A stretch of DNA of 64,000 nucleotides. Source: Cordylochernes scorpioides (Eukaryota; Arthropoda; Arachnida; Pseudoscorpiones; Chernetidae). The notes beneath the pieces are model-generated. The model was not told the DNA's origin and ran no database searches. It worked only from the letters and a program-made list of their open reading frames with translations. Shown here piece after piece: positions 25,575 to 25,790 of this stretch. Positions within the stretch are counted from its first letter, which is position 1. Each line of letters starts with the position of its first letter. The stretch is from the NCBI GenBank assembly GCA_030710605.1, contig CP092876.1, positions 64,666,115 to 64,730,114 on the forward strand. The letters run 5' to 3'. The position numbers and the translations under genes are program-made.

Positions 25575-25790
25575 GGAATGTTCTCTTACATTTTGCTGCA
25601 AGAGGTACTGGGCCATCTAGATCTGCTGGGGCGTGCCAGAGATGGTGATGACCCGTTCGTTGCTACCAGGTTGAGACTCATCTATGGTGATCCCCGCACC
25701 AGACTCGCGCCGGATCTTCCTGATGCGTTGACCACCTTTCCCAATGATGGCACCGGCGAGATCATTTGGTATAGTGACTTGTGATGAGCC
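25575..25790 (-). pseudogene. Captured KH domain resembling hnRNP K KH3
   Basis: In frame with the RT start at the upstream side. QVTIPNDLAGAIIGKGG, then QRIRKIRRESGAGITIDE, PGSNERVITISGTPQQI and, after one TAG, MAQYLLQQNVREHS. This is the full pattern of the third KH domain of hnRNP K (bancal in flies): the GXXG nucleic-acid loop is present as GKGG. The TAG replaces a residue that is Gln in the family, consistent with a single CAG to TAG change. No intron interrupts it, so it may derive from spliced mRNA. Downstream, without a visible gap, is an integrase C-terminal tail. A KH domain binds single-stranded RNA or DNA; any role in the element is unknown. Confidence 0.88.

What the first reader, a model, noticed from the sequence alone, without database searches (positions are those of the whole stretch)
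25575..25790. LTR retrotransposon carrying a captured hnRNP K-type KH domain in place of most of pol
The pol frame is gypsy-like up to the start of RT (DWCHPMVVVPKK) and resumes with the integrase tail (KRYNRNAKPL). Between them lies an intronless segment with every hallmark of hnRNP K KH3, including the GKGG loop. One LTR pair about 99% identical, a 5 bp duplication and an empty sister site show that the chimera itself was copied and inserted. Host-gene capture by an LTR element with an RNA-binding domain could alter RNA packaging, or be a passenger. One TAG interrupts this copy.
Basis: partly seen in the sequence, partly recalled or inferred. Interest (0 to 1): 0.88.

Follow-up and report, generated by a model that had tools for sequence, protein, structure and literature searches.

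The report
Retrotransposon family carrying hnRNP K domain
A mobile genetic element of a pseudoscorpion has replaced most of its replication enzymes with an RNA-binding domain taken from a host gene, and the hybrid now occurs at several places in the genome.

Summary
At 24,921-27,994 (minus strand) lies a 3.07-kb Ty3/gypsy-type element with 319-bp LTRs (317/319 identical), a 5-bp duplication and two empty sister sites. Between RT start and integrase tail sits a 71-codon insert, hnRNP K KH3, in frame on both sides, with one TAG (25,617-25,619); a second stop lies in gag (27,006-27,008).

It is not unique to this locus. Six annotated Cordylochernes scorpioides proteins carry the same RT-KH junction, on contigs of five lengths; three of six also show the KH-integrase junction. 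KH-less relatives show what was lost: 724 residues (RT, RNase H, integrase core). The host hnRNP K model has the same KH3 (66/66 with two copies) once a 19-residue, intron-like insert is set aside. This suggests capture from spliced mRNA by template switching, then spread in trans.

KH changes between copies (5/462 cells) as much as the rest (31/3445; p=0.61), so I see no sign that KH is specially maintained: passenger likelier than packaging factor. The kind of event is known; this cargo was not found in my literature searches.

The parts
24916..24920 (.). Target-site duplication ATTTG, low-coordinate side
   Evidence: Direct reading; single copy at the empty sister site (~52,050)
24921..25239 (-). 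3' LTR of the element (TG...CA)
   Evidence: 317/319 identical to the other LTR
25240..25249 (-). Polypurine-tract-like run AGGGGGGGCA directly before the 3' LTR
   Evidence: Direct reading; role inferred from position
25290..25568 (-). C-terminal tail of integrase, resuming at KRYNRNAKPL
   Evidence: tblastn of P0193 residues 831-931 onto 25,595-25,290, 92% identical; in P0193 this follows the rve core
25569..25781 (-). Captured hnRNP K KH3 segment, 71 codons, GKGG loop intact, interrupted by one stop
25617..25619 (-). In-frame TAG inside the KH segment of this copy; the six other copies are open here
25782..25790 (-). GSS codons shared, at protein level, by KH-less relatives (PKKGSSEP) and host gene model (KQGSSQV): the 5' junction lies here
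   Evidence: P0193, P0194, P0060
25791..26090 (-). Linker and start of reverse transcriptase, ending DWCHPMVVVPKK
   Evidence: 92 of 92 residues (RANEID to VVVPKK) identical to P0193
26091..26417 (-). Retropepsin-like protease region (WLADPGSDLDLI)
   Evidence: Shared with 6 of 6 chimeric and 3 of 5 KH-less relatives examined; the other two, P0193 and P0194, begin after it; protease name from motif, recalled
26418..26705 (-). Zinc-knuckle region of gag (CNKCGITGHYGRVC)
   Evidence: motif name recalled
26706..27605 (-). gag; ATG at 27,605
   Evidence: 195/198 and 193/198 identical to P0191 and P0192 over the 198 residues after the Met; start
27006..27008 (-). In-frame TGA in gag of this copy; the copies that cover this place (P0122, P0190, P0191, P0192) are open here
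27658..27675 (-). Primer-binding-site-like TGGCGCAGTCGACATTCG directly after the 5' LTR
   Evidence: Direct reading; role inferred from position
27676..27994 (-). 5' LTR of the element
27995..27999 (.). Target-site duplication ATTTG, high-coordinate side
33685..33760 (.). Empty sister site 1 (slightly diverged at the target)
52015..52095 (.). Empty sister site 2 (identical at the target, one ATTTG)

Best explanation
This is one copy of a non-autonomous Ty3/gypsy subfamily in Cordylochernes scorpioides (or a very close relative). The hybrid most likely arose once: during reverse transcription of a gypsy RNA packaged with a spliced hnRNP K mRNA, the enzyme switched from the integrase tail of the element to the KH3 coding end of the mRNA, then back at the GSS codons near the RT start. 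Codons for RT, RNase H and integrase core were lost and KH3 was gained in frame. The hybrid kept LTRs, PBS- and PPT-like sequences, gag and protease and was then copied in trans by the machinery of KH-less relatives. KH3 is most likely a passenger: a Gag-PR-KH-IN tail protein is possible, but no constraint specific to KH is seen. Shown: the structure, the shared junctions, KH-less relatives, this copy's own LTR-to-LTR insertion. Inferred: spliced-mRNA source, template switching, single origin, mobilisation in trans, passenger status.
For: This insertion: LTRs 317/319, TSD, two empty sister sites. Same RT-KH junction in 6 of 6 other chimeric proteins (P0014, P0121, P0122, P0190, P0191, P0192), same KH-IN junction in 3 of 6, on contigs of five different lengths. 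KH-less relatives P0193/P0194 read PKKGSSEPRVTVDL, and P0193 keeps RVT_1, RNase H, H2C2 and rve; in P0193 724 residues (115-838) stand where the chimera has 71. Host model P0060 has GSSQVTIPND, a 19-residue stretch starting VSHH and ending SSQ (could be GT...AG), then the rest of KH3; without that stretch it is 66/66 identical to P0121 and P0191. Relatives (KKGSS) and host (KQGSS) share GSS at the 5' junction. Change in KH 5/462 cells, elsewhere 31/3445, p = 0.61. The window copy has 8 in-frame changes (6 missense singletons, 2 stops) against about 6-8 expected from its LTR divergence (7.8 substitutions, 5.9 if an assumed 0.76 of them change the protein).
Against: No nucleotide sequence of the host gene or other copies was reachable (genome search did not complete), so shared bases at the junctions and the intron are read at protein level only. 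The other copies are gene models fused to other sequence, much of it transposon-like; P0014 and P0121 share an upstream transposon stretch, so they may be one insertion duplicated, and only the window copy has its own target duplication shown. Three of six models leave the insert before the 3' junction. The host model P0060 leaves KH3 after LLQQ, so the 3' boundary of the capture is not checked against the host. Seven copies are few, and protein change alone is not dN/dS.
Confidence: 0.82

Rival explanations
1. The KH domain is a working part of the hybrid: fused behind Gag-protease it binds RNA (hnRNP K KH3 binds C-rich sequence; recalled) and helps the non-autonomous RNA enter the particles of the KH-less relatives, which explains why this hybrid multiplied.
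For: In frame at both ends, match over nearly the whole of an hnRNP K KH3 chain (1zzi 8-78 of 82), GKGG intact in 7 of 7 copies and 2 of 7 identical to the host at protein level, several copies.
Against: KH changes as often as the rest of the element (5/462 against 31/3445); 1 of 7 copies has a stop inside KH, and none of the five KH changes is shared between copies, as expected of decay after insertion. Multiplication in trans needs only LTR, PBS, PPT and packaging sequences (general knowledge).
Confidence: 0.13
2. The hybrid is a single locus spread by segmental duplication of DNA, not by retrotransposition.
For: P0014 and P0121 share an upstream transposon stretch in their gene models; P0121 and P0192 lie on a contig of the same length; target duplications of the six other copies were not seen.
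Against: The window copy has its own 5-bp duplication and two empty sister sites; apart from P0014 and P0121 the gene models are joined to different neighbours, read by eye.
Confidence: 0.05
3. Assembly or annotation artefact joining an hnRNP K retrocopy and a gypsy element.
For: The other copies are gene models with fused transposon-like exons.
Against: The junction is in the window sequence itself inside one LTR pair, and the same RT-KH junction is in six gene models on contigs of five lengths.
Confidence: 0.02

Closest known systems
Bs1 LTR retroelement of maize (pieces of plasma-membrane ATPase and two other genes); PMC5408686 and PMC13317346, passages seen
   Same: LTR element that took up pieces of host genes in its internal region; a new hybrid reading frame resulted
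   Different: Plant; pieces of enzyme genes; here one RNA-binding domain, in frame with gag-protease and with the integrase tail, in several copies in an animal. Loss of Bs1's own replication genes is recalled, not checked
LTR-mediated retroposition in metazoans (Tan et al. 2016; seen only through passages of PMC5408686, the paper itself is not held)
   Same: Template switching between element RNA and cellular mRNA at short similarities puts mRNA sequence into the element's cDNA
   Different: From the passages I cannot tell whether any such chimera went on to multiply; this one occurs at several loci
Acute transforming retroviruses with Gag-oncogene fusions (recalled, no call)
   Same: Host coding sequence replaces much of pol, in frame after gag, and the hybrid depends on a helper
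   Different: No vertebrate retrovirus, no oncogene, germline copies instead of tumour isolates
LTR-captured genes of rice and sorghum (PMC3726574, abstract read)
   Same: Host genes carried inside LTR elements; many decay, some stay under selection
   Different: Plant surveys; the abstract does not describe one multiplied subfamily with an RNA-binding cassette
Ty3/gypsy relative in Orchesella dallaii (P0195)
   Same: Aligns to gag, protease, RT start and integrase tail of the window (about 48-49% identity)
   Different: Has RT, RNase H and integrase domains, no KH

Membership tests
Ty3/gypsy LTR retrotransposon (non-autonomous member) | LTR pair with TG...CA ends and short target duplication | tested here: met
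   317/319 LTRs, ATTTG twice, empty sister sites
Ty3/gypsy LTR retrotransposon (non-autonomous member) | Family relatives with RT before integrase | tested here: met
   P0193: RVT_1 109-268, RNase H 331-465, H2C2 586-637, rve 656-744
Ty3/gypsy LTR retrotransposon (non-autonomous member) | Own RT, RNase H and integrase core (autonomy) | tested here: not met
   Only RT start and integrase tail align to P0193; no RVT_1 or rve in the element's three ORF pieces
hnRNP K KH3 | Best single-domain similarity to hnRNP K KH3, including GKGG | tested here: met
   identical to host model P0060 over 66 residues except the stop
hnRNP K KH3 | RNA or C-rich single-strand binding | not testable with these tools
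   Needs a binding assay
LTR-mediated capture by template switching | Captured piece lacks host introns | tested here: inconclusive
   Host model has a 19-residue insert with the look of a retained GT...AG intron between ND and LAG; the captured piece lacks it. No host DNA seen
LTR-mediated capture by template switching | Short similarity between element and mRNA at the junctions | tested here: inconclusive
   GSS shared at protein level at the 5' junction; 3' junction not checkable
LTR-mediated capture by template switching | Chimera inserted as a unit between LTRs with its own TSD | tested here: met
   Window copy only
Domesticated host gene | Selection or expression of the fusion | tested here: inconclusive
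   No KH-specific constraint in 7 copies; expression not testable here

The most novel reading that the evidence does not exclude
A gypsy element gained an RNA-binding module by capturing one complete host KH domain, and the resulting Gag-protease-KH fusion helps a parasite subfamily to load its own or host RNA into particles supplied by KH-less relatives, so that domain capture created a new kind of retrotransposon parasite within an animal genome.
Probability: 0.12. Interest if true: 0.85.

Novelty: new variant of a known kind. Interest (0 to 1): 0.6.

Why it matters
It is an unusually readable case of an animal LTR element capturing a host protein domain: donor gene model, KH-less relatives, chimeric copies and an empty target site can all be named. 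It lets one ask when transduced host domains become part of a mobile element and when they are mere cargo. Practically, at least three C. scorpioides database entries named HNRNPK (P0014, P0122, P0191) contain this transposon, which can mislead gene-family and orthology work.

Tried and rejected
Artefact was rejected because six gene models share the RT-KH junction. Chance KH similarity was rejected. Descent from a donor in another animal was not favoured: the top outside relative, Centruroides hnRNP K, is 81% identical over 87% of the 68-residue query, while the C. scorpioides model is 66/66 with two copies once the putative intron is left out. As printed by the search, with the insert in place, that model scored only 74% over 87%.

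A first test on short pieces suggested that KH changes more than its neighbours (KH against protease p = 0.04; KH against three pieces p = 0.03; without the window copy p = 0.09). The wider count does not bear this out (5/462 against 31/3445, p = 0.61). How the two figures were made: the 5 are differences from the host model in a 66-residue KH piece of 7 copies; the 31 are singletons among the copies in two gag slices, zinc knuckle, protease, RT start and tail (12 of 839, 8 of 500, 4 of 573, 5 of 763, 2 of 537, 0 of 233). One search's own KH slices gave 3 of 413 and 1 of 80; they missed the change in P0190 (a 20-residue query) and do not see the stop. The 1 of 80 is a change in P0014 at the last residue of the insert, outside the 66-residue piece, and is in neither figure. 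Three non-singleton variants are left out of the 31; three of the 31 are adjacent at the start of P0190's match and may be annotation noise.

My first reading of the gag stop as a pair of frameshifts (not in any call) was wrong: other copies are open in the same frame. Pfam gave no match for the gag piece or the tail, so these rest on similarity to P0193 and P0195. A PDB search of the tail gave only weak, unrelated hits. Literature searches: LTR retrotransposon with KH domain and hnRNP K (3 papers listed), retrotransposon with KH domain, captured, gag and integrase (1 paper), pseudoscorpion with retrotransposon (3 papers); titles and abstract starts only, none of this kind. Searches gave background. 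All cover open-licence PMC papers only.

Full report
Observation. The window holds, on the minus strand, a 3,074-bp LTR element at 24,921-27,994. Its LTRs are 319 bp, 317 identical, without gaps. Both ends are flanked by ATTTG. The flanking sequence occurs three times in the window, and two of the three occurrences lack the element: at about 52,050 the site reads exactly like the two flanks joined over one ATTTG, and at about 33,720 it is empty but slightly diverged. So this element was inserted into one repeat unit as a complete LTR-to-LTR piece. A 24-base search of the LTR end, three mismatches allowed, found only these two LTRs in the window.

Anatomy. One frame runs from an ATG at 27,605 to 25,122, with stops at 27,006-27,008 and 25,617-25,619. 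It encodes gag with a zinc knuckle, a protease region, the beginning of RT (DWCHPMVVVPKK), then GSSQVTIPND...LLQQNVREHSFR, then KRYNRNAKPL and the integrase tail. The insert between GSS and KRYNR is 71 codons, 25,781-25,569. Pfam finds KH_1 (6.8e-19). In the PDB, Nova-1 leads on the whole chain through two KH domains, but as a single domain hnRNP K KH3 is closest; with the open copy P0121 the four best hits are hnRNP K KH3 (1zzi residues 8-78, E 1.7e-23). A PPT-like run and a PBS-like sequence sit next to the LTRs; their roles are read from position.

Other copies. A protein search with the KH region found 136 hits, of which the 120 listed are mostly hnRNP K or KH proteins of arthropods and other animals, with unnamed proteins and one plant protein among them. 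One hit is 99% identical over 100% of the 68-residue query: P0014, annotated HNRNPK of the pseudoscorpion Cordylochernes scorpioides. Two more searches (120 of 354 hits listed, 15 of 15 listed) added P0121, P0122, P0190, P0191 and P0192. All six carry PKK-GSSQVTIPND; P0014, P0121 and P0122 also carry the KH-KRYNR junction, while the gene models of P0190, P0191 and P0192 leave the domain after LLQQN. They lie on contigs of five lengths. The lists are capped and limited by protein length, so six is a minimum for annotated proteins. The window copy is none of them: it differs from each in residues, in its stops, or both. The window tail is 164/164 identical to P0121, so I infer that the window is from C. 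scorpioides or a very close relative.

Relatives and donor. P0193 and P0194, from the same species, belong to the same family without KH: PKKGSSEPRVTVDL continues into RT, and P0193 has RVT_1, RNase H, integrase zinc-binding domain and integrase core. In P0193, 724 residues stand where the chimera has 71. P0123-P0125 show integrase sequence running into the tail motif. The host hnRNP K model P0060 contains KQGSSQVTIPND, a 19-residue stretch beginning VSHH and ending SSQ, then LAGAIIGKGG...QYLLQQ. Without that stretch it is identical over 66 residues to P0121 and P0191. The stretch could be a retained GT...AG intron; the captured piece lacks it, which points to spliced mRNA. Relatives and donor share GSS at the 5' junction, as expected of template switching at a short similarity. 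The 3' junction cannot be checked, because P0060 departs after LLQQ.

Passenger or part. In seven copies, 5 of 462 KH cells differ from the host model (one is the window's stop), each in a different copy. Elsewhere in the element 31 of 3,445 cells are singleton changes; the rates do not differ (p = 0.61). A narrower first count had pointed to more change in KH (p = 0.03-0.09). In the window copy, 6 missense singletons and 2 stops compare with about 6-8 expected from its LTR divergence, that is, decay without visible constraint since insertion. Function cannot be excluded: the domain is complete, GKGG is intact in 7 of 7 copies, and changes after insertion say little about selection on the founder lineage. 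Nucleotide comparison was not possible (genome search did not complete).

What is known. [quoted passage not shown] PMC13317346, passages; PMC3726574, abstract). The described mechanism, template switching between element RNA and mRNA at short similarities in the particle, fits. Non-autonomous LTR elements that may move in trans are discussed for a mosquito (PMC3286476, passages). I found no report of a KH domain in an LTR element within open-licence PMC papers. I therefore call it a new variant of a known kind.

Noticed in passing
22,244-34,282 and 34,320-55,012: Long repeat blocks (2.4-5.8 kb, about 89-95% identity) recur through the middle of the window; the element sits in one of three copies of its target sequence.
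   Followed up: partly
58,811-63,673 (-): A BEL/Pao retrotransposon with a 1,262-residue open frame (Peptidase_A17 1e-45, RVT_1, integrase zinc-binding) followed by an ORF at 58,811-59,884 that reads like integrase (by eye).
   Followed up: partly
38-1,141 (-): 367-residue ORF with weak DDE_3 similarity (17.6 bits, below the curated cut-off of 28.6), perhaps a Tc1-like transposase.
   Followed up: partly
5,516-12,923: ORFs that read like pieces of non-LTR retrotransposons (by eye).
   Followed up: no
25,583-25,592 (-): The captured KH end contains AATGTAAGAG, a splice-donor look-alike; 3 of 6 gene models of other copies leave the domain after the N of LLQQN. If used in vivo, it would fuse KH to downstream exons.
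   Followed up: no
18,494-19,482: Tandem array with copies spaced about 143-171 bp.
   Followed up: no
C. scorpioides proteins P0014, P0122, P0191: Database entries named HNRNPK contain this transposon chimera; the host gene model is P0060.
   Followed up: yes
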